64,000 nt of DNA from Ophioderma brevispina. Taxonomy: Eukaryota; Echinodermata; Ophiuroidea; Amphilepidida; Ophiodermatidae. The notes under the pieces are model-generated. The model searched no databases, was not told the origin of the DNA, and was given only the letters and a program-made list of their open reading frames with translations. Each line of letters starts with the position of its first letter. Position 1 is the stretch's first letter. Both the position numbers and the translations under genes were made by a program. Below are positions 726 to 47,910 of the stretch, piece after piece. The DNA is taken from positions 62,001 through 126,000 of the forward strand of contig JAMKCH010005450.1 in the NCBI GenBank assembly GCA_023653785.1, in the 5' to 3' direction.

Positions 726-1121
726 CCCCTTAATGCTTACATAATATATTGTATTCGTATTATATTACATGTAGTATATCAATAGATATAGCACTACATT
801 ATTTTTCTCATCCTTTAAACATTTTGAGGGATATCGTTTTTACACGTTATTAAGTTTGCACAAGTAAATGCATGCCGATAAGAAAACGTGTTAAAGTTAC
901 CAGTGGCCTAATTTTTGCATTTATTTGTGCTAATTAAGTATTATTATTTGGCAACTAAATTAAGTATTATTATTTGGCAACTAATTTGGCCTATGACAGC
1001 GATTTCTCTATGGAAAAGAAGAAAATATACATGGAATGATCTGTTTATTTTTTATCCCGCGCATCAGTTACTTTCATTTACCTTTTTCTTTTTATCTACC
1101 ATATCATTTTACGCATTATAT
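726..1121 (+). repeat. Partial copy of the 2.1-kb tandem unit (segment A0)
   Basis: This AT-rich segment is nearly identical to 3627-4051. It lacks about 35 bases present there (3769-3803); that loss lies between short ATGC repeats, as expected for slippage. The equivalent segment in the adjacent unit (1545-2030) is more diverged. No gene is seen. Confidence 0.85.
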
Positions 1122-1215
1122 ATATTTATATATAATAATAATAATATTATAATTATAATTATATAATTAAAAATTTGAAACAAAATACTTCTAACTTTTT
1201 TTTTTTTTTTTTTTT

Positions 1216-1463
1216 GGAAAGACCAAGGTGAATTTGAAGTTTCTAAGAAAAATACAAGATGGTATAAATTTGGCTATATTTTGCAATAATTATTTTAATT
1301 GGTTATTCTAGAGTAGATCTAAGGAATTATTTTGGTTCAAATCCTTATATTGTCAAACTCACATGGGAAAGTGGTTATCTGGGTTGGGTGCCTAGGACCC
1401 CTCCCCCCCCCCCCCCTTGGGCACTAACGGAAGTTTTTTTTTTAGCATTGGGCAGCTTAAGTG
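1216..1463 (+). mobile_element. P-family (piggyBac-like) right-end fragment
   Basis: This matches the right part of the complete P element at 28732-29529, including the AAACTCACATGGGAAAGTGG block, the CTAGGACCCC/GGGCACTAACGG subterminal block, and a decayed CTTGGGCACTTAAGTG end. The left half is absent; a T tract precedes the fragment. Confidence 0.8.
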
Positions 1464-2077
1464 TGTAAATATTCTAAAGCCATGTTGCGATTAGGGTATG
1501 TGTATGTGCTAAGTACATTACTTGTAGTCACGAATCAAAGGCATGAGTATGCTTTACATCATATATTGTATTCGTAATTATATTACCTTTAGTCTATCAC
1601 TAGATTTGCACACTACATTCATTTTATTTCTCATCCTTAAAAACAGTTTTAGGGATAATCGTTTTTACACGTCATTAAGTTTGCACAAGTAAATGCATGT
1701 CTTCAAATAGTCATATCTGTTTTGCCTTTGCGATGCCGATAAGAAAACTTGGTTAAAAGTTACCATGGCCTAATTTTTGCATTTATTTGTGCTAATTAAG
1801 TCATTATTATTTGGCAACTAAATTAAGTATCATTATTTGGCACTAAGTTGGCCTATGACAGCGATTTCTCTATGGAAAAGAAGAAATACATGGAATGATC
1901 TGTTTATTTTTTATCCCGCGCATCATAACTTTCATTTACCTTTTTCTTTTTATCTACCATAATCATTTTAACTTCATTATATATAATTTAATATATATAA
2001 TATTAATAATCTTATAATTATAATTAGAATAATAAAAATTTGAAACAAAATACTTCTAACCGTTTAAATTTGTCCAG

Positions 2078-2078
<1 letters not shown>

Positions 2079-2109
<31 letters not shown>
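2079..2109 (+). repeat. Poly-C tract
   Basis: An uninterrupted run of about 31 cytosines. It is absent at the equivalent point of tandem copy 2 (about 4140), so it is a recent expansion or a sequencing/assembly artefact. Confidence 0.9.
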
Positions 2110-2111
<2 letters not shown>

Positions 2112-3207
2112 ATACTACGCAAACAAACACTATCGAATTCTCTCTTGTTAGAAGTAGCAACTGGTAATCGAATGCTTGATTGCTCAACCAGTCGGAAAGA
2201 ACGATTTTTCAAAGGCTCGCGAATCTAGAATTCATGAACCGTCAGAGAACTATTTTTAAACAAATCTAGTATTTTATATAATATTTCACACCTTAAAAAA
2301 ACCGAATAGTTCCGGATTTGTGTATTTGCGCTATAATTACACACCAGAACGATTTTAAAATACACTTGTCTTTCTAAACTACTGACAGTTCAAATCTTAA
2401 CCTCGCAAAAAATAGCACAGGCGCGCGCAATCCTCGGATGAAGATATTCAGTGATTTAGCCGAAATATCAGGCGGCAATTAAACGCTGATGACATCAGAG
2501 TGTTGCTCCAATTTGCCTTTTGTAACCTAGGCGAGTCCACTGAATGTGTCTTCCTATACGTGAAACAAAGACCTTGCGGATCAAAGCTGTCAGCACTTAT
2601 CATCTGAATCTGATGAAATCTAGGTTTCAAGTTTGCGTTTAGTCGTCTTTCATCCTCAGGAGGCTCACAATGTTTGCGCAATGAATATGGAACACTTGAC
2701 TTTATAATGCCTAGGGCATCGAGATATCTGTTATATCCACTGTGTTTGTGTGCGATTGTGCATTTGAGAGATATTTGATTTCACATTTGTTGTAGCAAGA
2801 CGGAAAATACGTCCACTATAAACATTGATATGTGAATATTGTGACATTTATTGCAACGTGTGAAAGAACGTTATTCTATTTCATTGAGTATCAACATTGG
2901 AACGAAAGAAGAGATATCATTCATAACGGCATTAAATTCTCAAATGTAAATGCAAATGAAGCTATTCGGATATTCATAAAAGCACGAAATGGTGTGACAA
3001 TGTTAAATTACCATGTTTGCTAACGTCAGTAGACTCCCTCGTGTGGCAAATGTTAGGGATTGTTGTGGTGTGTTTTATTTAAACCGTTCATTCTCTTAAG
3101 CGATTTTGAGATTAAACAACGTATTGTAATTTACAGGTGCAACAGAGTTTTCAAGTCATCCCTATTTTCTGTGAGGTGCGAGTTTCATGAAGATTTACGC
3201 ACAATAG

Positions 3208-5255
3208 ATATTTATATATAATAATAATAATATTATAATTATAATTATATAATTAAAAATTTGAAACAAAATACTTCTAACTTTTTTTTTTTTTTTTTTT
3301 TGGAAAGACCAAGGTGAATTTGAAGTTTCTAAGAAAAATACAAGATGGTATAAATTTGGCTATATTTTGCAATAATTATTTTAATTGGTTATTCTAGAGT
3401 AGATCTAAGGAATTATTTTGGTTCAAATCCTTATATTGTCAAACTCACATGGGAAAGTGGTTATCTGGGTTGGGTGCCTAGGACCCCTCCCCCCCCTTGG
3501 GCACTAACGGAAGTTTTTTTAGCTTGGGCACTTAAGTGTTAAATAATTCTAAACGCCATGTTGCGATTAGGGGATGTGTATGTGCTTAAGTTACATTACT
3601 TGTAGTCACGATCAAAGGCATTAGTTAATGCTTACATAATATATTGTATTCGTATTATATTACATGTAGTATATCAATAGATATAGCACTACATTATTTT
3701 TCTCATCCTTTAAACATTTTGAGGGATATCGTTTTTACACGTCATTAAGTTTGCACAAGTAAATGCATGTCTTCAAATAGTCATATCTGTTTTGCCTTTG
3801 CGATGCCGATAAGAAAACGTGTTAAAGTTACCAGTGGCCTAATTTTTGCATTTATTTGTGCTAATTAAGTATTATTATTTGGCAACTAAATTAAGTATTA
3901 TTATTTGGCAACTAATTTGGCCTATGACAGCGATTTCTCTATGGAAAAGAAGAAAATATACATGGAATGATCTGTTTATTTTTTATCCCGCGCATCAGTT
4001 ACTTTCATTTACCTTTTTCTTTTTATCTACCATATCATTTTACGCATTATATATATTTATATATAATAATAATAATATTATAATTATAATTATATAATTA
4101 AAAATTTGAAACAAAATACTTCTAACCGTTTAAATTTGCCAAGTCATACTACTCAAACAAACACTATCGAAATTCTCTATGGTTAGAAGTAGCAACTGGT
4201 AATCGAATGCTTGATTGCTCAACCAGTCGGAAAGAACGATTTTTCAAAGGCTCGCGAATCTAGAATTCATGAACCGTCAGAGAACTATTTTTAAACAAAT
4301 CTAGTATTTTATATAATATTTCACACCTTAAAAAAACCGAATAGTTCCGGATTTGTGTATTTGCGCTATAATTACACACCAGAACGATTTTAAAATACAC
4401 TTGTCTTTCTAAACTACTGACAGTTCAAATCTTAACCTCGCAAAAAATAGCACAGGCGCGCGCAATCCTCGGATGAAGATATGTCAAGTGATTTAGCCGA
4501 AATATCAGGCGGCAATTAAACGCTGATGACATCAGAGTGTTGCTCCAATTTGCCTTTTGTAACCTAGGCGAGTCCACTGAATGTGTCTTCCTATACGTGA
4601 AACAAAGACCTTGCGGATCAAAGCTGTCAGCACTTATCATCTGAATCTGATGAAATCTAGGTTTCAAATTGCGTTTTATTCGTCTTTCATCCTCAGGAGG
4701 CTCACAATGTTTGCGCAATGAATATGGAACACTTGACTTTATAATGCCTAGGGCATCGAGATATCTGTTATAGCCACTGTGTTTGTGTGCGATTGTGCAT
4801 TTGAGAGATATTTGATTTCACATTTGTTGTAGCAAGACGGAAAATACGTCCACTATAAACATTGATATGTGAATATTGTGACATTTATTGCAACGTGTGA
4901 AAGAACGTTATTCTATTTCATTGAGTATCAACATTGGAACGAAAGAAGAGATATCCATTCATAACGGCATTAAATTCTCAAATGTAAATGCAAATGAAGC
5001 TATTCGGATATTCATAAAAGCACGAAATGGTGTGACAATGTTAAATTACCATGTTTGCTAACGTCAGTAGACTCCCTCGTGTGGCAAATGTTAGGGATTG
5101 TCGTGGTTTGTTTTATTTAAACCGTTCATTCTCTTAAGCGATTTTGAGATTAAACAACGTATTGTAATTTAAAAAGTTGCAGCAACGAGATCTTTTCACG
5201 TCATCCATATGTTCTTGATGTGTAGAGGTTTCATGAAGATTTACGCACAATAGAT
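3208..5255 (+). repeat. 2.1-kb tandem duplication, copy 2
   Basis: Same order as copy 1: AT-rich lead, T tract, P right end (3302-3538, with intact CTTGGGCACTTAAGTG then TTAA at 3539-3542), A segment, C segment. Homology to copy 1 ends near ACGCACAATAGAT at about 5253. Afterwards the sequence is unique. No gene is seen. Confidence 0.9.
3302..3538 (+). mobile_element. P-family right-end fragment
   Basis: Better preserved than the copy at 1216. The terminal CTTGGGCACTTAAGTG is intact and followed by TTAA (3539-3542), matching the right junction of the complete element at 28732-29529. Confidence 0.8.
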
Positions 5256-9500: not shown

Positions 9501-9649
9501 TAAGGGCCGAGCTACGCTATTTTGAATCAAGTTACTTATTCAGCTCTCTCCCTATCAACTAGCCCTGGAGCTAGCACCCATTTGGTACACACACATCTCA
9601 AGTACAAAAGTTTTAGTATTAAATATGTAGACAGACTCACAGGGACCCC
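6542..9649. other. Long stretch without recognised genes
   Basis: Mostly AT-rich single-copy-looking DNA. It includes a weak imperfect inverted repeat around 7050-7200 (CACAGTTCAGT versus ACTGAACTGTG), a G tract near 8692-8701 and several A/T tracts at 8.7-9.0 kb. Short open frames at 7.3-7.9 kb overlap on both strands and have no recognisable motif. Confidence 0.5.
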
Positions 9650-10378
9650 TGAACATAATTCTTAAGTGCCACATGTGCCTTAAAGGATAGGGGTCAAGAC
9701 AAGGTGTTACAGGGGTCAATTTTTTAAAATTGATCCATCGTGCTGAAAAAATACACCATGTTATTATTCTACCACAAGGATTCAGGAAAGGTCATAGTTT
9801 GTACTATCTACAACGTAAGGTTCAAGAGTTTTATAGGCTAAAATCAGCAAAAATCAATAAAAAGGGTCAATTTCAAGTTGTACAGGGTCAAATTGTTAAG
9901 TTGCTCCGATTTGGATAAAATGGTGTAATTATGGTGAGCTCATAGGATCAAAATAAGGAATAGTTTTGACTGTCCTCAAATGCTTGCTTAAGAAGTAGGG
10001 GGAACAGAAGTCAAGCCCCATTGAATGCATTGGACGTTGACCTTCTGTGCCCCCTAACGGGAACTAAGTATTTTAGACATCAAAACTATTCCTTATTTAA
10101 ATACTATGAACTCCATCAAATTTGCACCATTTTTTTATCTAAACGGAGCAACTTTAAAATTGTTTGACCCCTGGTACAACTGAAATTGAACCCTTTTTCT
10201 TGATTTTTTCTGTTTTTATCCTATAGGTCTTAATTTTAGCATGTATATAATACAAACTATACCCTTTCCTGAAATCCTTGTGGTTAACAAATAACATGGT
10301 ATACTTTTCAACATGAAGTTTGATCAATTAAATTTGGACCCCTGTACAAACTTGTCCTTGGCCCCCTCCTCCTTAGGC
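9650..10378. mobile_element. Fold-back (long palindrome) element
   Basis: The left arm (about 9655-9975) is the imperfect reverse complement of the right arm (about 10078-10375), with about 100 bases between them. Matching landmarks are GGAATAGTTTTGA / TCAAAACTATTCC, TTGCTCCGATTTGGATAAAA / TTTATCTAAACGGAGCAA, and CATAGTTTGTACTAT / ATACAAACTATACC. No coding frame is seen. Related arms occur at 42055-42150, 44105-44250 and, more distantly, 52950-53810, so this is a dispersed family. Confidence 0.8.
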
Positions 10379-10673
10379 ACCATTTGCTGCACTTAAGATC
10401 ACGTTTCAGGAGTTCCTGTCAGTCTGTCAACCTATTTAATCACTCAAACCTTTTGTCACTGAGCTGTGTTAACAATCTGTTAGCTCCCCGGGCTACACGT
10501 ATTCCCTTTTTTGTGTTTGAATGCCCTGCGGCCCAAACTAAGCAAATGACTCCTCCAACTAATGCTAAGGGTATGTCTATGTTATCTAAGTAAATGGCAT
10601 TAAAAGGTATAAAAGTCAGTTATAATGGTAATATTTAAGGTGTTATTTGAAAACACTTTTTTCAAGCTGGGGC
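10379..10673. other. Spacer between fold-back elements
   Basis: No repeat arm or recognisable coding sequence. Confidence 0.4.
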
Positions 10674-18555: not shown

Positions 18556-18803
18556 ACTAATTTTTAGAAATTCTAAAGCAAACGATCGTTTTTGGTTTGT
18601 TTTGTTTGCTTTGCAGTTTTGCACCTGTAACTTGCGCGTCTCATTTCTAAACGTGACCGAACAGCGGCGTCGACTTAAGCAGTACCGTAGTAAACGCACT
18701 TCCGTGTACACTGCGCGGGCGTAACGCGCTAATTTGCATACAACTGTGGGTTTGATAACGAATCAACCACGGTACCGTAATGACAAGCCCAATTATAGTA
18801 ATT
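18556..18803. promoter_or_regulatory. GC-richer spacer with octamer and ETS-like motifs
   Basis: Short CpG-containing stretch just before the palindrome array. It contains CACTTCCGTG (ETS-like) near 18697-18706 and a perfect octamer ATTTGCAT at 18732-18739. No open frame follows, so any regulatory role is speculative. Confidence 0.2.
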
Positions 18804-19640
18804 CGATAAACACTGTTTATCGCGATAAACACACTGTTTTTTTTCGATCGAAAAAAATAGTTTTCGAGAAAAACTATGTTTTTCGAATCGAAAAACAAAG
18901 TTTAGCGATAAACAATTGTTTTACGAGAACCTAGTTTTCGCCGATAAACAATGTTTTTCGATTCGATAAACCTGTTTTTCGATAAACTAGGTTTTTTCAC
19001 GTTCGAATAAACTTTGTTTTTTTCGAAAAACAATGTTTTTTCGATAAACTTAGTTTATCGAAAAACTATGTTTTTTCGTCGATAACAATGTTTTTTCGAT
19101 CGATAAACACGGTTTATCGATAAACTGATTTTCACTCGATAAACTTTGTTTTTCGAAAAACACTGTTTTTCGATAAACCTCAGTTCTCCGATAAACAATG
19201 TTTTTTCGATTCGATAAACCATGTTTTTTGACTCGAATAAACGTTGTTTTCGAAAAACAATGTTTTATCGATAACCCCTGTTTATCGAAAACACAGTTTA
19301 TCAGTCGAAAAACAATGTTTTTCAATTTGTAAACCCTGTTTATCGAAAAAAAACAGTTTATCAGTCGAAAAACATGTTTTTCATTTGATAAACCCTGTTA
19401 TTCGATAAACACAGTTCTCGGTTGAAAAAACATTTGTTTTCGAAAAATATATTTATCGAAAACCCTGTATCGAAAAACAAAGTTTATCAGTCCGAAAAAC
19501 ATGTTTTTCGATTTGATAACCTGCTTTATCGATAAACCAAGTTTTATCAATTCGCAAAACAATGTTTTATCATTCGAAAAACAACATGTTTTTTCACTCG
19601 AAAAACAGTTGTGTATCAGGCGGATAAACAGTGTTTATCG
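18804..19640 (+). repeat. Array of alternating short palindromes
   Basis: About forty diverged copies of two related dyads are packed head to tail: CGATAAAC-(A)CTG-GTTTATCG type and CGAAAAACAATGTTTTTCG type. Each dyad spans about 18-20 bp, joined by TTCGAT, AGTCG or TCACTCG linkers. Examples: an exact 19-bp dyad starts at 18804; others lie near 19035, 19160 and 19625. There is no spacer diversity or leader as in CRISPR, and the context is eukaryotic. The array runs directly into the conserved tail at 19641. A shorter copy sits at 27345-27560 with the same tail. Confidence 0.85.
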
Positions 19641-19826
19641 ATTTACTATACATTGAGTTCGCCATATCCGCTTCCTGTAAAGGGAGATACGGCGAGTGTT
19701 AAATGTATATAATATTATTTCAATATGTTTAAAATTTCTCTCTCTTGTAATTAGGCCTGTGGTCCACGTAAGTGTGGAATAAAAATAATATCATTATTGC
19801 TATGCTCTCACTCAATCATACACTAT
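19641..19826 (+). repeat. Conserved tail after the palindrome array (start of R)
   Basis: Matches 27561-27757: GGGAGATACGGCGAGT, AATATGTTTAAAAT, TCTCTCTTGTAATT, GGCCTGTGGTCCAC, then TCAATCATACACTAT. At ACTAT the match stops here because element X is inserted, and it resumes at 25033. Confidence 0.85.
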
Positions 19827-20239
19827 AGGCCAAGAGCATAGTTATACCTGGAAATAGCTGATAACAAGCTGAATTTTTCAAGATAGGCCAGAAGATGAGT
19901 AGAATAACATACTAAAGTCCCCAAAAATCCCCCGGAGCTCTACTGCCAAAATACCAAGATGGCGTCCAAAATGGCTCCATTTTCTATTTTTATCGAAACT
20001 TTGTCCAACAGACAAGTTTTAAATACAAGTGTCTATAGAATATATATATATGTTTTAAGGCACCGGAATCTATATAAAGTCATTACATTTAGACTTTAAA
20101 ACCTCCCAAATATCCACACTTAGATGGCATCCAAAATGGCTGCCATTTTCTGATTGTTCATAACTCGATAAGGCGTCATGGTAGAAGTACAAATTAAGTG
20201 TCTAAAACATATGTTTTAAGGCACAGAAGAATATAAATG

Positions 20240-20880
20240 AAGCCAGTATTTAGAGGGTCCAAAACTCATAAGTAGCCACCCAAGATGGCTTAAAAACTTG
20301 ATCCTCTATGATGGTATCAAATGATGCAAAAAATAGAAGAAGTTTCCGCGTTACAATAGTGTTCACCGTCATCTGGTGAAGCATCTTCAACACGAATGTC
20401 CATTTGTGTAGGCACAATCTCATATCATGACATCTAATAAGGTCGTCGTGGATGTTGCAAGTTGACCACAGCATTACTGTAAGTGAGGTGTATTCAGGGG
20501 TGATCCAAAAAGAATCCCAAGATGTTTCTTGCAACTGCTCAATCTCAGGTTTGAGCAAGTGTCTGGTGTGATTGAGATGTCTGGTTCTAATTTTGCACAT
20601 GTCGCCATACCCTTTTAGTTTGAGGCAGAGTGCTACCCATCCATTCTTAATCCGCGAGATAAGTGTGAAAACTGACTGATTGCCCGTTTGTATGCTTTTT
20701 GTCCGTATTCATCAAGTGATTTAGGAATGCTGGCCCCGTAAGTTTAGGAATGCCATGCATGTATCTATTGTTAATAAAGCTATCCAGTAAGTCTCTTAGG
20801 ATCCTATATCACTCCCATATTAAATTTAACCATTCTGCATTCTGATTTGTTTTAAATATGTTGTAATATATATAGCTCGT
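20240..20880 (-). other. Unassigned interior of element X
   Basis: A 116-codon open frame on the minus strand (20250-20600) shows no domain I recognise. It may be decayed X sequence or LINE 3' flank. Confidence 0.3.
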
Positions 20881-20884
20881 TCTT

Positions 20885-22105
20885 TCGTTGAAGTCCAAAA
20901 TCTCAGTGGAAGGTCCATCTTTAACCAGCTGATAGTTTCATTGACCAGGTTAATAAGGCTTTGATTACACCTGGAGACTTGTAGACCTCACAGTCATCTA
21001 TGATGTGGCTAATGGTTTGCGGCTCTCCACAATCGCAGTTCTGAGTCTGTTGAGCTTGACCCATGCTTACCTATCAACGTCGCAGTCCTTGGGCTTGCTA
21101 GATGGGCTGTCCACAAACTGCTTTAGGTTCAAGGTAGAGGATGACCATTGCTCAGACCATATGTCATTGATCCAGGATGATCGATAGGGATACTGCGACT
21201 GCAGTGTCATGGATTTGGGTAGCAAAGTGAGGTGGGGGATTAGGCTACCAGGTTCATCACACTTCTAGGTGAGCTTGGTCATCTGAAAATTCCTCCTAAA
21301 GTTTAGAGGAGCTACTCCGACAGAATTGTAAGATATTCTACAGGCGTCACCAAAAGGCACTAATAAGTCTCATTGCATCATTCAAAACGACATCAATCTT
21401 GTGTGAGTGTACACTGTGACTCTATATTGGTGCAGTGTATTCAGCAGTTGAGTATGCCAAACAACAGTTGATGTATGTAAAGTGTCGAAAGATGCGCCCA
21501 TCCAGTTCCTGCGAGCCGTCTGAGGAGATTGGCACGAGACTGCGTCCTGGCAGCGACTGCCTTGGTGTGTTGATGGAAAGTAAGGCTGCTGTCCATTATG
21601 ACAACAAGGTACTTCAGTGTGGGGTCGTGTGACAGTTTATCGCCATCTAGAGTGATGTTAAGTTCTCTTTTTGCGCATTGATTTGCAAGGTGAAAAACAG
21701 AGCTGACGGTCTTGGATTTGCTGAGTTTCAATTGTCATCGGGGATGAATTGGCTTACAGTGATTAGGTCTTTCTGCAACACCATTTCTAAGGTCTCAGAA
21801 GAATCAGCAGCCATTCCAAGTGCCGTATCATATGCGTAGGAATACTGCGAACAATCTCTCTTTGGCATTTCTGAGATGTAAATGTTGCAAAGACTGGATG
21901 CCAGGACAGAACCTTGTGGGACACCATTCAGAAGTAGGTGCTTTCTACTGTATTACCCATTTAAAGTTTCCAGGACGCAAGATCTGTCTTGGATGAGCAG
22001 CATTATGAATTTGACAAGCTTGACATCAGGGAAGGCTTTGAGTAGCTTTAGGTTGAGACCTTGATGCCAGACTGCATAGGGATCAGTTGGATCTATGAAG
22101 ACTGA
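20885..22105 (-). pseudogene. Decayed non-LTR retrotransposon reverse transcriptase (Jockey/CR1-like)
   Basis: Read on the minus strand, pieces in several frames follow the order of a LINE ORF2. First comes a WHQGLNLKLLKAFPD piece (about 22030-22080), then NGVPQGSVLASSLCNIYIS (RT palm GVPQGS block, about 21880-21935). Next is YAYDTAL in place of the catalytic YADD (about 21819-21838), so the active-site aspartate pair is broken. Then come KYLVVIMDSSLTFHQH (about 21600-21640) and NLLRRLAGTGW (about 21490-21530). A C-terminal CDCGEPQT..H....C cysteine/histidine motif (about 20990-21046) closes the series. Frameshifts and stops separate the pieces, and the 5' part is missing (5' truncation is common for LINEs). 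It lies inside element X and is a dead copy. Confidence 0.9.
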
Positions 22106-22734
22106 AGACTAAGTATCCCAAGCCGTAACAGTATGTAGAGACTCAATGATTTCTATAGTTTTTTTCTAGTTTCTCCGATGCAACTGAATTTCATGAAGGT
22201 TGAAGACTTTTAAAGTATTGGTGGACAATATGTCCGATACTTTAGTAATATAGTAACCACGCCTGATACATAACATGACAATTAGTGCCGGATTGATGAC
22301 AATAACTGACAACCGTCTGACTGTGCTAAAGCGAGATTGTTGATACATTACAGGTCCGTATTCTGCTTCCTCTGCCTGCTTTACGGAGAGAGTTAAATGT
22401 GTTGTCCAGATTTTTGTCCCTCTTGTTCTCTACTTAAGGTGAGAGCCTGATACTTGTACACACTGACCATCCAGTACACGGTGGAAACACGCTTGCGGTT
22501 TTGATGCTAGAGACGCGAATAACGCATAGTGCAATTCCCCCTTCACTACCTGCGCTAATATTGTGGTTAACTGTATCTTAAGAAAGAATGGATTTGAAAG
22601 CTGAAATCTCTGACGACAATTAGAAAAATACGGTCTTCCATCTTAATATCAAATTTAAACTACTCCGGGTTAAATCAGGGGATCCAAAGACATCGGACAA
22701 GCACCTTTTAAGTCAGTTAAAAATATCTGGTTAA

Positions 22735-23531
22735 AGGTCCATGGACAACGGCCTGAGTAGACATTCTTCATTTCTTACATTTTATACTCACATATCCCTG
22801 ATCATATCGTGCACACAGATATTTCTAAAAGTGAACATCGGGATTGTTAAATTTCAGGATAACTATACCCAAACTGACAGTGGGCCTTTCCCTGTTTGTG
22901 GAATCGCGTACAGATGCTGGAGTTGGATTTGAACCCCGTTAATGACGTCCTTGTAACCAATTTAACAAGCTCACACTGGGCTAACCGCACCGCACAGCTC
23001 CAATATCTCCCTTGTCGTTTCTTCTTTTTCCGGACCCTTGAATAAATCTATTCTGTTTTCTGATTCTCCTTGTCGGTAATCAGCACTCGCTGTGCACAGC
23101 CTTCGACAATACCTCACATTATAATCGTAATTTTAAGGCATCAAATCAGGAAAAATTATATGCCATATGATACAAACACTACGACGCTATCCGAGAAGTC
23201 AACTGTGTACGTCTGCAAGAAAACGGGACCACGCGCACGTCCGTTCACGATGACGAATCATGACGCGAATCGCGTATTTGTTACTCGGAAGTCACTACTA
23301 CTTCTGGGTCCCCTTGCCACGCGTTAATCACTTTCATTTTTGTGGGGGGGGGGGGGGATTTCTTTGAAAGCTTTTCAAAACACCTGATATATGCCCAATT
23401 TTTAATCAAATATACGGGTTCTCAATTACTGCTTCTGTAACAGATTTTTTACATTGATATCAATACATACAATGAAATGAAACCATTTTTTTGGTGGTAT
23501 TTAAGTATGTTTAAAGCAATGTCCATGGACC
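22735..23531 (-). mobile_element. Kolobok-like TTAA element with THAP-exon relic, copy 1
   Basis: TTAA (22731-22734) precedes AGGTCCATGGACA, and TGTCCATGGACC precedes TTAA (23532-23535). The whole element is the inverted homologue of 47124-47906. A minus-strand exon-like segment (22975-23119) begins with ATG, encodes a decayed zinc-binding start (IVEGC) and ..NRIDLFK, and ends at a GTGAGC splice donor. Kolobok transposons are known for TTAA target sites and THAP-domain proteins, so that assignment is inferred. Both copies are too short to encode a transposase. It sits inside element X. Confidence 0.8.
22975..23119 (-). pseudogene. THAP-like first-exon relic
   Basis: Homologous to 47516-47660. 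An in-frame stop follows the ATG in this copy and the FP motif is degraded. The donor GTGAGC (plus-strand 22969-22974) is at the same place. See the better copy at 47516. Confidence 0.5.
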
Positions 23532-23535
23532 TTAA

Positions 23536-24430
23536 GGGTTAACTGTTTTGACACACCCCTCAGGTATGTGAGTGGCATTCCCGGGTGTTAAAAAGCTAGA
23601 GGCACTTTAAAAGTCTATGTAATCTTTGTCCTTTGCAACCTATAAAGTGTACTCATCAAGATGCCACAGAGGGCTGCTCAAGGAGGTGAGCACAAAGGAT
23701 GAAAAAGGAGAAGAGGCACACCCTGAAGCATTTCTCTTTATTATCGGCATATTTCCAAGTTAAGCCATCAGGAAGGTGACATAATAGCCCAGAGGACATT
23801 ACGTTTAGATTGTGGGCATCTATGGTTATTTCTCGTAACTAGTCAAGGGGAAACAAAACAGTGGTGTATTAAATTGAAAATTACTAAAATCTAATAACAG
23901 TCTTCCTTGCCTATAAAAGCTGCCTCATCCCTGAAAATGAATCCACGTCACACACTCATTTTTCTTTTCCCAATATCAGTGACCCAAAATCCAGATAGAA
24001 CATTTTTGGAATGCTGGGCTAAGCAAAACACTCCTTATTTGCAGCTTTTCCCCCTCAATTATTACGGGGGTTAAATGACGGCATGTGTTCATATTCCAAA
24101 TCTCTAATGTAAAACGACGCCATAGTTAATGTGTGCACATTCATGATACATTTGCATATTAATTATTATCATTCTATACGTATATTTGTCACTGCCAATG
24201 TGTTCAATTCTGCCAAAAGTTGCGCTGGACAAGCTGGCTGCTGAGGAATCCCCGGTCAGGCCTACCACCAGATAATAGTCACGATCCCTTCGAGTTTTGA
24301 AGTTCTAATATTGTTTTCGATTCCCCTGCAATTAAATCACACTGTACTTAGACTCTTTATTTGGCATTTCTAATAGATTTTTGTAAAAGTTAGATAAAAG
24401 ATAACAATATTGGTCTTTTTTGGTTAGCTA
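23536..24430. other. Interior of element X without recognised gene
   Basis: Unique-looking DNA including a TATAAAAG sequence near 23912 without a supported transcript. No transposase motif is seen. Confidence 0.4.
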
Positions 24431-25032
24431 TTAGTTTAAGGCACCCTAGAAAATGCTTTTATTAGCCGTTTATTATCCTTAAAAATACGTTTAGACAACT
24501 AATTTTGGATTTCTAATTTTGCATATAAGTTTATGATACAATTAGAAATGGGGCCATTTTGGACGCCTCTTGATTTTTGGGTACTGTAAGCTTTGAACCT
24601 CCAATAATGACGTCATTGCCCATTCCTTGTGCCTTAACATACTGTTCTGACACTTTACTTTGTATTTTCAACGTGTCTGGTTGCAAGAATACGATCAAAT
24701 TGGAAAAGAGCGTCCCTTTTGACCGCCCTCTGGTTGTTGGGTACTTGTAAGTTTTGAAAACTCTCAAAATAAATGACTTAATTCCTTGCTTGTGCCTTAA
24801 AACACTGTTGGACACTTTATTTGTATTTTCAACTTGTCTGGTTTGCACAGAGACGATAAAATGTTAACATGTCGGCCATTGGGCCCGCCATCTTGAATTT
24901 GGAGATGGCTCCAGGATGATTTTCGGGACTTTTAGTATGTGATTCTACTCATATTCCTAGACCTATCCTAAAATTCAGCTTGTTATGAGCTATTTCCGGG
25001 TTTGAGCCTATATGAGCTAATGCTTCTTGACT

Positions 25033-27344
25033 ACTATCCTAAAATCTTTTTGTACACAGCCGAACCTTTTTTTAAAGAAAGCTCTAACACGGTTTACTCT
25101 AAGGACATTAATCAACAATTTTCACTTGAAACTTTAGGATTAAATTAAATATTGAAAAAACAAAAAAACACGCGTTTTTAACCTAATTTTAAAAAAAAAA
25201 AAAAATAACAATAATTAAAACATGAATTGGAGATAAAAAGTGTGGGGATTCCTGAGATATTAGTTTCCGCATGAATAACCCTGTCCTTACCTAGGATCAG
25301 TAAATGAAAAATAAGAACCGTTTACCGTGAAACATTCCAGAATACATTGACGTCCACACCTGTCTTTAATCACGTAACTGTCCAATGACTTTCCTTTTAT
25401 CGATCATTGGTTTCATACTTTCCTTTGATTAAAGGAAGATAACTACGCATTACTAACTACCGCTAACAGTCAGGCAAAGGTGCAATTCACACAACCATTC
25501 AACTTTACATTGTTTAATAACAATTACCAACATCACTGTGCAAAACCACCAAATTTGGAAAATTATGGGCGCCTTCAAAATGTGGCGGTTGATTGCTTTT
25601 TAAGCTGCAGCTTATGTATTGTAAATGTTAATTAATATAATTATTCTCATCGTTACTGCGATAGTCATGCTTCTTCAAGTTCATGTAAATTTGACTCATG
25701 TTATTTCATATTTTCATTTTATAATATGTTCTGAACCACATTTAATGTTTTCATTTTGTGGTCTTAATTAAACCTAAATGTATATAATAGTCTCCGGTGA
25801 TTTTTAAAAGTAACTTTCTTGTAATTAGGCTTACGGCCCATCGTAAGTGTGATTAAAACAACATCATTATCGCTATATTTTCATCATTCATCATACACGA
25901 TCAAATACAATCTTTTGTACCCAAAATCTTTTAAGAAGCCTCTTAAAACGTTTACTTCTAATGATAATGATAACATGATCAACAATTTTCAACTAGAAAA
26001 CTTAATATATTAAATAATTGATAGCGGTGTACAAGATCTCACCTTTAAAATATTATACAAGATGACAATAAATTAAACATCAAATTGGAGATAAAACGTG
26101 GTGGTGGGGCGGGGATTTCTGAGATATAGTTTTTCCTCCTCATGAATAACCTGTCTGGCCAATGATGGAAAAATAGAAATACGACCGTAGACCGTGAAAC
26201 ATTCATATACATTGCGTCAACCTGTCTTTTATAATACGTACTTCCACATGACTTTTCTTTTATCTCAATCATTCGTTTTCAATATTATCCTTTGATTGCA
26301 AGTAGATAACTACAGCATACTACCGATAACAGTCCAGCAAAGGTGAATTCAGCACTAAAAAATAGCCCCGCGACTTTAGTGTATTTGTATGAGGTGAACG
26401 CATGGGACGATTGTTTCGGTTCAATTCCAGGAATGTTAGTAATTTCGTGTAGAAAGATGTAGTATTACAGTTTTGTCCGGTTAGTAACTGTATTATAGCA
26501 GGATTCTCAGTTCAACAATCGGCTTTCTCCGTGGGACAAATAAGAAACACTATAAACAAACCAAAACCAAACACTAAACTAAAAACTAAACTTCTGAAAA
26601 AAAACAGAATCCATCCGTTAATTTTAGAATTTGTTTATTAGCTTTTTGTCAAACGTTTCCTTGAAAACATTATCTCAAACATCCTTGAGAAGCATATTGT
26701 TTGGTGTTTCGTAGGTTTGAAATTGGCCTTTCCTCAAGGCTTGGGCTATATGTTGATTTCCTACAGGCCCTGTATACGTGTGGTATAGCGCCTCTCATGG
26801 GTGTCTCTTGCCCTCGCTCCGCTCGTCGAGGTCTTTTTTCGCTTCTTATCAAATATGGTACCGGTTACATATATATATAGGTTTATTGGACGACAAGTAC
26901 AAACAGAAAACCGCAAACCTTGTTTTTGAACTGCCCTGCTATCGTAATGTGTGCCTAGAGACAACCTGCTTTGATTTTATGTCGTGCACGAAAGAAAATA
27001 CTTAAATATCATCTAATTATTACATAAAGACTGCGTACTGTGGAATGTGAGAGACTTCTTGTTTTTACCACTCTTAATAACAATCAATTTAATCGATAGC
27101 ATCACTCACTTATCGATAAATATCAAGTACCCGAATCAACAATGCAACAGATTGATTTGGGTCATTGTGATATTTTGGCCAGTTTTGCATCACTTTATTA
27201 TTCAGTCAATAATATACATATTAACAATAAAGAAAATGTAAACATTTAAACAAGATAAGCTGGAGCCTATATTGACCACCAACCGGGTATTAAACAATTC
27301 ATATAGAATAAGAGACTACACATATAAATTTATAAACAAAATAT
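25033..27344 (+). repeat. R repeat units and 3' block, duplication copy I (continued)
   Basis: Resumes the R sequence broken at 19826: CCTAAAATCTTTTTGTAC, A-rich tracts, AACATGAATTGGAGATAAAA, TGACGTC, CAATTACCAACA. A second R unit starts near 25775 and ends at about 26350, giving a tandem period near 0.87 kb. A non-R block follows (about 26350-27344). Copy II lies at 27345-30870. From about 26750 to 27344 the two copies differ by a single base, while upstream they differ by many small indels. The 26.8-kb part contains a GC-richer CCCTCGCTCCGCTCGTCGAGG hairpin. Open frames in this block are repeated in both copies and match nothing I know. Confidence 0.85.
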
Positions 27345-27560
27345 ATCGGTTGAAAAACAGTGTTTTCGAAAAACACTGTTTATCTATAAACCCTGTTTAT
27401 CGAAAAACAAAGTTTATCAGTTCGAAAAACAATGTTTTTTCGATTTGATAAACCCTGCTTTCGATATAAACACAGTTTATTCAATCGCAAAAACATGTTT
27501 ATCAGTCGAAAAAACAATGTTGTTCACTCGAAAAACAGGTTTACGGCGGATAACCCCCCG
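27345..27560 (+). repeat. Palindrome array, second (truncated) copy
   Basis: Collinear with the last ~200 bp of the array at 18804-19640. It starts abruptly at the tandem-duplication junction (AAAATATAT to CGGTTGAAAAACAG), with the same CGATAAAC/CGAAAAAC dyads and the same tail. Confidence 0.85.
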
Positions 27561-30500
27561 TGTTTATCGCATATTCACTATATCATGAGATGCCATATAC
27601 GCTCCTGTACAGGGAGATACGGCGAGTTGTTGAAATGTATATATATTCTTCAATATGTTTTAAAATGTTTCTCTCTTGTAATTGGCCTGTGGTCCACCGT
27701 AAGTGTGAATAAAAATAATATCCCTTATGCTATTGCTCTAACTCAATCATACACTATCCTAAAATCTTTTTGTACCCAAGACCTTTTACAAGAAAGCTAT
27801 AAAAAACGGTTCTTCTAATGATAAATGAATCAACCAATTTTCACTAGAAACTTAGATTAAATTAAATATTGAAAAATATAAAAAAAATAAAAAAAATAAA
27901 AAAAATAAAATGTTATACAAGATGACAATAAATTAAACATGAAATTGGAGATAAAGGGTGGGCGGATCCTTAGATATTTAGTTTCTCATGCATAACCCTG
28001 GTCTGGACACTATAATATAGTAAATAGAAAATAACCGGACGGTTACCGTGAAACATCCAGATACATTGACGTCAACCGTCTTTAATACGTAACTTCCACA
28101 CATGACTTTTCTTTTATCGAATTCATTGGTTTCATACTTATCCTTTGATTGAAAGTAAGATAACTACAGCATCATTACCATAACAGTCAGGACAAAGGTG
28201 AATTCCAACACACCATTCACTTTACATGTTTATAAACAATTACCAACAAAAACTGTGCAAAAACCCTCCAAATTTTGAAAATTATGGGCGCTCTTCAAAA
28301 ATGTGCGGTTATTGCTTTAACTTCAGCATTATGTATTGTAAAATGTAATCTAATAATAATTATTCTTTTTCCTTTTCGTTACTGCGATTATGTCATGCTT
28401 TCTTTCAAATTATGTAAATTGAATCAATGTTATTCAATATTTTCATGTTTTTATATGTCTGAACACATTTAATGTTTTCATTTGTTGTCTTAAGGTAAAC
28501 ATAATGTAATAATATCTCGGTGCTTTAAAGTACTTTCTTGTAATTAGGTTACGGACAATAGTAAGTGTGAATTAAAACAACATCATTATCGCTATAGTTC
28601 ATTTCTATCATACACGATCCTACAATCTTTTTGTACCCAAAATCTTTTAAGAAAGCTCTAAAACGGTTACTTCTAATGAATAATGATAAACATGACTCAA
28701 CAATTTTCACTTAAAACTTAGATTATATTAACAACTTAAGTGCCCAAGAGGGGGGTTCCATAGTACCCCAATCGGATTTTTTTGCGATTTCTTTACTCGT
28801 TACGCGCAATTCAAATTTTTTCATGGAGTTTTTTTGCTAATTGTCTGATTTATGAATACGCGTCCTCCTGATACTACAAAAAAATTAAATCCGCCCACGG
28901 CTTCAATTAGAAAATTGGTTGGGGTCCCTAGAACCCCCCTCTTGGGCAAATACGGAAGTGAAAAAATCAAGATATTTCCTATTAAAAAATAAATTAATTA
29001 AATCTTGGGATTTATTTGCTTAGATATATACCTTAGGAGGCAATTAAGTACTCATTTAATAATCTTAATCAAATAACCTTTTATATGCTGATAGCATCAA
29101 TTTGAATGTTGTCATGACCATGCTCTTAACTGTGTACGTCTATGAGAAAACCAGGTGATTTTTTGAAGTTTCTGAGAAAAATACAAATAGGTAAATAATT
29201 TGGCTATATTTTGCATGATTATTTTAATTGTTATCTAGAGTAGATATAATGATTATTTTGGTTCAAAACCTTATTATTGGCTTTCTGCGGACGGATATGT
29301 GCGAACGCCCTTCTTTTTCGGAGAGTGGACAATTCCAATTGCCCCGAGGTCATAGGTCAAAGTTCGGATTTTCATTTTTATTGTGGAGTATGTGGTTCTT
29401 AGTGACCCCAATTTAATTGTGTTAGTGCCATGATCAAACTCACATGGGAAAGTGGTTATCTGGGTTGGTCCCTAGGAACCCCCCTCTTGGGCACTAACGG
29501 GAAGTTTTGTTAGCTTGGGCACTTAAGTGTTAAATAATGATATCGGTGTAACAAGAATCTCACCTTAAACCCAATAACTTATACAAGAGGACAATAAATT
29601 AAACATGAAATTGGAGATAAAAAGTGTGGTGGGGCGGGGATTTCTGAGATATTAGTTGCCTCATGAATAAACCCTGTCTGGCCAATGATTGGAAAAATAA
29701 GAAAATAAGACGTATACCGTGAAAACATTCAGATACATGACGTCAACCTGTCTTTAATACGTAACTTCCACATGACTTTTCCTGTATCGAACATTAGTTT
29801 CATACTTATAATGTGATTGAAAGTAAGATAACTACAGCATACTACCGATAACAGTTCGAGGCAAAGGTGAATTCAGCACTAAAAATATGCACCCGCGACT
29901 TTTAGTTGTACTTGTTGAGGTGAACGCATGGGACGATTGTTCGTGTTCAATTACCAAGAATGGAGTATGTTCTGTAGAAAGATGTAGTATTACAGTTTGC
30001 TCCGGTTAGTAACTGTTTAAGCGGGATTCTCAAGTTCAACAATCGGCTTTCTCCGTGGGACCAAAAGAACATCTAAACAAACAAAAAACAAAAAACCGAG
30101 ACGAACGAAAAACTTCTGAAAATAAAAAACAGAATCCGTTAATGTTTAGAATGTTGTTTATAGCGTTTGTCAAACGTTTCCTTGAAAACCTTTTAGCTAA
30201 AACATCTTGAGACGCATTTGTTTGGTGTTTCTTAGGTTTGAATTGGCATTTCTTCAAGGCTTGGGCTATATGTTGATTTCCTACAGGCCCTGTATACGTG
30301 TGGTATAGCGCCTCTCATGGGGTGTCTCTTGCCCTCGCTCCGCTCGTCGAGGTCTTTTTTCGCTTCTTATCAAATATGGTACCGGTTACATATATATATA
30401 GGTTTATTGGACGACAAGTACAAACAGAAAACCGCAAACCTTGTTTTTGAACTGCCCTGCTATCGTAATGTGTGCCTAGAGACAACCTGCTTTGATTTTA

Positions 30501-47119: not shown

Positions 47120-47123
47120 TTAA

Positions 47124-47906
47124 AGGTCCATGGACATGCTTTAAACATACTTATAATACCACCAAAAATGGTTTCATTCATAGTATGTATTGGTATCAAT
47201 GTAAGATCTGCATGAAGCAGTAATTGAGAAACCGTATATTTGATAAAAATTGGGCATAATATCATGTGTTTTGGACAAGCTTTCAAAGGATATTAAAAAA
47301 CAAAAGTGATTATCGCGCTGGCAGCGATGACCCGGAAGTGACCCCGAGTAACAAATACGCGATACGCGTCATGATCGTCATCGTGGAACGGACGTGCGCG
47401 TGGCCCAGTTTTCTTGCATACGTACACAGTTGACTTCTCGCGGTATATGTGTAGTATGTGTTGTATCATATGGCATAATTTTTCTTCATTTGGTGCCTTA
47501 AAAATTACGATAATAATGCGCTGTATTAGATTGTCGACGCCTGCACCAGCGGCGACCGTACCGACAAGGAGAATCAGAACAGAATAGCTTTATTCAAGTT
47601 CCCAGACAAAGAAACCGACAAGGAGAGATATCTGGAGTGTGCGGTGCGGTTAGCTCACGTGTGAGTTTTGTTTACAACTTGTCACTCTGACGTCATTAAC
47701 GGGGTCAAATCCAACTCCAGCATATTGATACGCGTTCGCGAAAACAGGAGAAGGCCCTGTCAGTTTTAGGTATATTTATCCTTAAAATTTAACACTTTCC
47801 CGATGTTCACTTTCAAAAAATCGGTGTTGCGATATGATCAGGATACTGTTGAGGTACGAAAATGTAAGTAATTAAGAAATGTCTACTCAGCCGTGTCCAT
47901 GGACCT
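47124..47906 (+). mobile_element. Kolobok-like TTAA element with THAP-like exon, copy 2
   Basis: Ends AGGTCCATGGACA / TGTCCATGGACCT between TTAA at 47120-47123 and 47907-47910. It is homologous, inverted, to 22735-23531 over its full length. It carries an exon-like segment with a good donor but no transposase, so it is probably an internally deleted derivative of a larger element. The superfamily is inferred from TTAA plus THAP. Confidence 0.85.
47516..47660 (+). pseudogene. THAP-domain first-exon remnant
   Basis: THAP domains are C2CH zinc DNA-binding modules that start near the N terminus with C-x2-4-C, followed by a [F/H]xFP motif. Here ATG at 47516 begins M-R-C-I. After an apparent 4-base insertion (by comparison with copy 1), the frame reads on through TDKENQNRIALFKFPDKE and KERYLECAVRLAH to a GTGAGT donor at 47661. 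The FKFP motif, ERYLECAVR helix and exon end match the first half of a THAP domain. The remaining C..H half would be in a second exon, not found here. It is broken as it stands. Confidence 0.6.
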
Positions 47907-47910
47907 TTAA

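What the first reader, a model, noticed from the sequence alone, without database searches (positions are those of the whole stretch)
19827..25032. 5.2-kb TIR element X with a readable empty site in a tandem duplicate
The R repeat breaks at ACTAT (19822-19826) and resumes after ACTAT (25033-25037). The duplicate at 27752 has the uninterrupted ACTATCCTAAAATC. This gives exact ends, a 5-bp TSD and a relative date: X inserted after, or in only one copy of, the duplication. The transposase family is unknown.
Basis: seen in the sequence. Interest (0 to 1): 0.75.

Follow-up and report, generated by a model that had tools for sequence, protein, structure and literature searches.

The report
Jumping-gene insertion with readable empty site
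A 5.2-kb non-coding "jumping gene" with mirrored ends, carrying a broken retrotransposon piece and a smaller mobile element inside it, sits in one of two nearly identical neighbouring DNA copies while the other copy keeps the empty landing site; it is a clean example of an ordinary kind of event, and it suggests that the element moved recently.

Summary
19827-25032 (5,206 bp) interrupts a repeat whose uninterrupted copy lies at 27332-28731; the flanks share ACTAT and the empty copy has one ACTAT. X has ~500-bp inverted arms with tandem ~165-bp modules. None of its 80 stop-free pieces of 35+ aa matches a transposase in Pfam. It carries a 5'-truncated, decayed LINE fragment and a TTAA-flanked MITE. 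Best reading: a non-autonomous, foldback-like cut-and-paste element mobilised in trans.

Two corrections. (1) The TSD is not fixed at 5 bp: 3-bp CTA with TAG... ends fits as well. (2) The two repeat copies differ mainly by indels and A<->C/G<->T changes, a PacBio-like error pattern, so their true divergence is small. Either the duplication is very young or two alleles were joined by the assembler; either way X looks recent or heterozygous. Copy 2 has its own insertion, Y (28732-29529, TTAA), absent from copy 1.

Transposase superfamily and host stay unknown: the own-genome search did not complete (20 tries), and the scans of other collections gave no relative. New member of a known kind.

The parts
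19822..19826 (.). left target-site repeat ACTAT
19827..25032 (.). element X (5,206 bp) under the 5-bp TSD reading; 19826-25033 under the 3-bp CTA reading
19827..20338 (+). left inverted arm, with two ~165-bp tandem modules (19957-20116, 20122-20278; 69% identical); a third, shorter stretch to 20338 is inferred from the match to the right arm
20339..22112 (-). nested LINE fragment, 5'-truncated: RT homology detected between 22108 and 21031 (RVT_1 E=3.2e-4 on one piece, below Pfam's cut-off); both outer limits, the 3' one above all, are inferred
22731..23535 (.). nested ~0.8-kb MITE, inverted 14-nt ends AAGGTCCATGGACA in a TTAA context; second copy at about 47120-47910 (minus strand), 80% identical
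24445..25032 (-). right inverted arm (TIR match 24511-25011) with three ~165-bp modules (24902-24746, 24740-24585, 24585-24445; neighbours 75% and 66% identical)
25033..25037 (.). right target-site repeat ACTAT
27332..28731 (+). uninterrupted copy of the target repeat; empty site at 27753-27757
28732..29529 (.). element Y: 798 bp, ends CAACTTAAGTGCCCAAG.../...CTTGGGCACTTAAGTG between TTAA repeats (28728-28731, 29530-29533); empty site in copy 1 at 26010-26013

Best explanation
X is a non-autonomous, foldback-like cut-and-paste DNA transposon. Its ~500-bp inverted arms, built of repeated ~165-bp modules, are presumably bound by a transposase supplied in trans by an autonomous relative elsewhere in the genome. 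Excised as one unit, already loaded with a dead LINE fragment and probably a TTAA-type MITE, it integrated by a staggered cut at ACTAT (5 bp) or CTA (3 bp) into one of two nearly identical copies of a repeat; the other copy preserves the target. Shown: breakpoints, target repeat, inverted arms, modules, nested parts, empty site, error-like nature of the copy differences. Inferred: transposase in trans, cut-and-paste, nested parts present before the jump, recency.
For: Breakpoints and a single-copy target in the empty copy; arm similarity above all 200 random pairs; modules. Pfam scan of all 80 stop-free pieces of 35 aa or more that one search lists for X: one RT match, otherwise only sub-cut-off matches to unrelated families, none a transposase. 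Decayed LINE: RVT_1 match E=3.2e-4; 28 RT homologues, 27-69% identical; 7 of them begin to align at 22,102-22,108, 6 of these 7 having further residues before that point, and none of the listed matches lies above 22,108; the first Asp of YADD reads Y, and motif A reads FIDPTDPYAVWH where P0001 has FIDLTAAYDTVWH. Arms differ with K80 0.152 and ts/tv 29:30, while the flanking copies show 27 transitions and 103 transversions in 2,617 sites, so X's own decay looks older than the split of the copies.
Against: Only one copy of X has been seen, so ends, TSD length and mobility rest on one event. No autonomous partner was found. X's own sequence is noisy too: with only well-isolated substitutions counted, the arms give 1 transition to 4 transversions, so part of the arm difference is error. 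The YADD change is G-to-T, an error-type change. Gene conversion between tandem copies could homogenise the flanks and make X look younger than it is. The copies may be alleles rather than a duplication.
Confidence: 0.7

Rival explanations
1. The tandem 'duplicate' is an assembly artefact: two alleles (with X / without X) laid end to end. X is then a heterozygous insertion polymorphism, and Y likewise on the other allele. (Compatible with the best explanation of X itself; it concerns the setting.)
For: Copy differences look like read errors. Each copy has an insertion the other lacks. The units abut with a 15-bp overlap. Elsewhere in the window 730-1195 and 3625-4126 are identical but for 1 substitution and one 36-bp gap, while the pair 1108-3209 / 3194-5255 differs by 40 substitutions and 46 indel events in 2,034 aligned bases, so clean and noisy copies are mixed in this assembly.
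Against: Real tandem repeats of this size are common in repeat-rich DNA (general knowledge). No read data are at hand to show two haplotypes.
Confidence: 0.35
2. X was present before the duplication and was lost from copy 2, by precise excision or by repair templated on an empty copy.
For: No out-group was seen, so the empty state is only inferred to be the older one.
Against: No footprint: one ACTAT and an unbroken alignment. Two further copies of the repeat in the window, at 25896 and 28613, are also uninterrupted, reading CACGATC, so the empty state is the common one here.
Confidence: 0.08
3. The stretches 19827-20338 and 24445-25032 are separate elements or rearrangement ends flanking unrelated DNA, not one transposon.
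For: More than half of the interior is nested or unclassified; nothing in it ties the two arms together.
Against: The arms are inverted, similar over ~500 bp, and lie exactly at a target repeat with an empty site.
Confidence: 0.07

Closest known systems
Foldback-type elements such as Tetris of Drosophila virilis (PMC4079207, abstract start and passages seen)
   Same: Long TIRs containing tandem modules (~220 bp in Tetris, ~165 bp here), non-coding middle, no autonomous copy known.
   Different: Tetris TSDs are 8-10 bp and its authors place it with Mutator; here 5 or 3 bp. No sequence comparison with Tetris was made.
hAT5 (hAT with 5-bp TSDs; named in PMC12730594, passages seen)
   Same: TSD length, if the 5-bp reading is right.
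AcademX and PIF/Harbinger (3-4 bp and 3-bp TSDs; PMC10045372 and PMC12730594, passages seen)
   Same: TSD length, if the CTA reading is right.
   Different: No transposase in X; end sequences not compared.
KolobokP (PMC9587614, passages seen)
   Same: TSDs of 3-4 or 4-5 bp, depending on the family.
   Different: KolobokP has long terminal direct repeats with short TIRs; X has long inverted arms.

Membership tests
TIR cut-and-paste DNA transposon (order level) | terminal inverted repeats at the ends | tested here: met
   score 335, null maximum 127 in 200 pairs
TIR cut-and-paste DNA transposon (order level) | target-site duplication with an empty site | tested here: met
   ACTAT on both sides, one copy at 27753-27757
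Autonomous TIR transposon | DDE transposase gene | tested here: not met
   no transposase match in 80 of 80 stop-free pieces of 35+ aa; a gene broken into shorter pieces by errors could be missed
Foldback-like element | long TIRs with internal tandem repeats | tested here: met
   ~165-bp modules, 66-75% identical
Mutator-type foldback (Tetris) | 8-10 bp TSD | tested here: not met
   shared flank is 5 bp at most
Ginger2 | TGTNR termini (PMC2836005, passages) | tested here: not met
   ends AGGCC/AGTCA or TAGGC/TAGTC
Transib | 5-bp TSD with CAC-type termini (both recalled, from no call) | tested here: not met
   termini are not CAC under either reading
KolobokP | long terminal direct repeats | tested here: not met
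   no same-strand match joins the two ends of X at E<=1e-4; none in the 20 families listed
hAT5 | 5-bp TSD | tested here: inconclusive
   5 or 3 bp
hAT5 / AcademX / Harbinger | family transposase in an autonomous relative with the same ends | not testable with these tools
   own-genome search unreachable (20 tries); pattern scans of viral and prokaryote contigs gave no relative

The most novel reading that the evidence does not exclude
X belongs to a currently active family whose transposase is of no described superfamily (ends TAG/AG, 3- or 5-bp TSD, modular ~500-bp arms), and it routinely carries nested retroelements as cargo because only the modular arms are needed for mobility.
Probability: 0.06. 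Interest if true: 0.6.

Novelty: new member of a known kind. Interest (0 to 1): 0.3.

Why it matters
A filled site and an empty site side by side give an element's ends without any database, and they suggest that a decayed, passenger-laden element moved recently, which would imply an active transposase source in the genome. The error-spectrum check also warns that insertion dates read from duplicate divergence in an unpolished long-read assembly can be badly wrong.

Tried and rejected
Other copies: pattern scans with the arm block GGAAATAGCT-N-ATAACAAGCTGAA in viral contigs (0 hits) and the same block one base shorter in genome contigs (0 hits); AAGATGGC-N-TCCAAAATGGC (1 hit) and GTTTTAAGGCACAAG (53 hits) in viral contigs. 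Of these 54 loci (all 54 in the file) none aligned to X at E<=0.01 or to the window at E<=1e-6, so they are taken as chance matches. These scans need exact matches and may leave out the window's own genome. Phage collection: no match to 19827-20338 at E<=1e-5. An ORF lying in the right arm (24531-24863): 2 candidates, none at E<=1. Rfam: nothing at the gathering threshold in the window.

Rejected: a transposase in X (80 of 80 pieces). Further nested inverted-repeat elements: 0 pairs in 22100-22740; one 12-nt pair in 23520-24460, taken as chance; over 22100-24460 seven pairs, among them the MITE's ends and a perfect 13-nt pair (22204-22216 / 23604-23616) that encloses the MITE and was not explained. 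A TSD for the LINE was sought: only two 7-nt matches, neither convincing. Literature on such elements: three searches (listings, and passages of seven papers) showed nothing that I recognised as this element; that does not show it is unpublished. The AcademH paper (PMC7165386) is not held.

Full report
Observation. The 5,206 bp at 19827-25032 interrupt a repeat. Flank 19405-19826 matches 27332-27757 and flank 25033-26013 matches 27753-28731, and the two matches overlap by exactly ACTAT in the uninterrupted copy. ACTATCCTAAAATC occurs twice in the window, at 25033 and 27753. Three other copies of the repeat aligned to X's left flank run through the site without interruption, reading CACTATC once (27752) and CACGATC twice (25896, 28613).

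Ends. The inverted arms align over 19838-20338 and 24511-25011. The score of the outer 520 nt is 335, against a maximum of 127 and a median of 48 in 200 random same-spaced pairs from the window. The terminal bases read AGGCCAAGAG and AGTCAAGAAG if the duplication is ACTAT, or TAGGCCAAGAG and TAGTCAAGAAG if it is CTA; both are symmetric. One copy cannot decide, and the arms themselves contain sequencing noise.

Anatomy. Each arm holds tandem modules of about 165 bp, two plus a shorter stretch on the left and three on the right; neighbouring modules are 66-75% identical. Inside lies an antisense LINE fragment: Pfam RVT_1 at E=3.2e-4 on one piece (20.9 bits, below that family's cut-off of 29.6) and 28 homologous proteins, 27-69% identical. 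Seven of these begin to align at 22,102-22,108; six of the seven have further residues before that point, and no listed match lies above 22,108, which marks the 5' truncation. Motif changes (FIDPTDPYAVWH; YAYD for YADD) and several frame changes show a dead copy, though the Y of YAYD is a G-to-T change and frame changes could be read errors. A second nested part at 22731-23535 has 14-nt perfect inverted ends in a TTAA context and a second copy at about 47120-47910 with TTAA on both sides. TTAA with purine-first ends is what PMC9587614 (passages) states for Kolobok, so Kolobok-like is a plausible but untested label. The rest of the interior (22150-22729 and 23534-24450 were tested) matches nothing else in the window. 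All 80 stop-free pieces of 35 aa or more in X were scanned with Pfam: besides RVT_1 only matches below the curated cut-offs to unrelated families appeared (best E=0.0056), none a transposase.

Dating. Between the copies of the 2.7-kb unit (A/A', B/B') there are 192 indel events against 130 substitutions, and the substitutions are 27 transitions and 103 transversions in 2,617 sites. Adding the tandem pair at 1108-5255, A<->C plus G<->T make up 106 of 170 substitutions and ts/tv is 0.23; in nine other repeat pairs that I picked from the list, ts/tv is 0.79 (166:209); Fisher p=5.7e-9. Two pairs counted were not put into that test: 730/3625 (1 transition, 0 transversions) and 733/1549 (2 and 16). 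With only substitutions flanked by four matching columns on each side, A/A' and B/B' give 4 transitions to 21 transversions, and the seven of the nine other pairs counted there give 19 to 34: the same direction, but showing that noise touches all copies. PacBio raw errors are indel-rich, affect homopolymers and are elevated in A<->C and G<->T (PMC7671305, passages); nanopore errors favour transitions (PMC8486125, passages). So the copies are probably almost identical in truth, with at most about 1% transitions. X's arms, by contrast, differ with ts/tv 29:30 and K80 0.152, though only 1:4 in isolated substitutions. X is therefore most likely an old, decayed element in a young position. That the LINE was inside before the jump is inferred from its decay; for the MITE it is only likely.

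Reciprocal event. Copy 2 holds its own insertion Y (28732-29529), with ends CAACTTAAGTGCCCAAG / CTTGGGCACTTAAGTG and TTAA on both sides, where copy 1 has one TTAA at 26010-26013. Parts of Y recur at 1233-1440 and 3319-3529. Each copy thus carries one insertion that the other lacks: two independent insertions after a duplication, or two alleles joined by the assembler. The near-perfect pair 730-1195 / 3625-4126 (one substitution, one 36-bp gap) shows that this assembly mixes clean and noisy copies, so the second reading is live.

Mechanism and family. The anatomy fits a non-autonomous foldback-like element moved by a transposase acting in trans. It resembles Tetris (PMC4079207, passages) in its modular arms but not in TSD length. 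Ginger2 and KolobokP fail on defining features, and Transib on features recalled from memory; hAT5, AcademX and Harbinger cannot be tested without other copies. Host taxon: a eukaryote, judged from composition, lack of long ORFs and LINE content; no call named it.

Verdict. A real, clean insertion of an ordinary kind, with a useful correction to its dating. Whether its transposase is known is open.

Noticed in passing
28732-29529: Second insertion Y (798 bp, TTAA target repeats, TIR CACTTAAGTGCCCAAG) in the other tandem copy, with its own empty site at 26010-26013.
   Followed up: yes
1108-5255: Another abutting tandem pair of ~2.1 kb whose differences also look like PacBio errors (5 transitions, 35 transversions, 46 indel events).
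   Followed up: partly
730-1195 and 3625-4126: Identical over 466 aligned bases but for one substitution, plus one 36-bp gap, while neighbouring copies differ by several percent: mixed polishing or a falsely duplicated stretch.
   Followed up: partly
18790-19655: Self-complementary tandem array of CGATAAAC/GTTTTTCG-type units leading into the target repeat; a shorter array lies at 27344-27585.
   Followed up: no
9591-10469: Large imperfect palindrome (76% over 916 columns), possibly an inverted-repeat element.
   Followed up: no
47120-47910: Second copy of the TTAA/AGGTCCATGGACA MITE, with TTAA on both sides.
   Followed up: partly
22204-22216 and 23604-23616: Perfect 13-nt inverted pair (AGACTTTTAAAGT) enclosing the nested MITE inside X; could be chance or the ends of a further nested element.
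   Followed up: no
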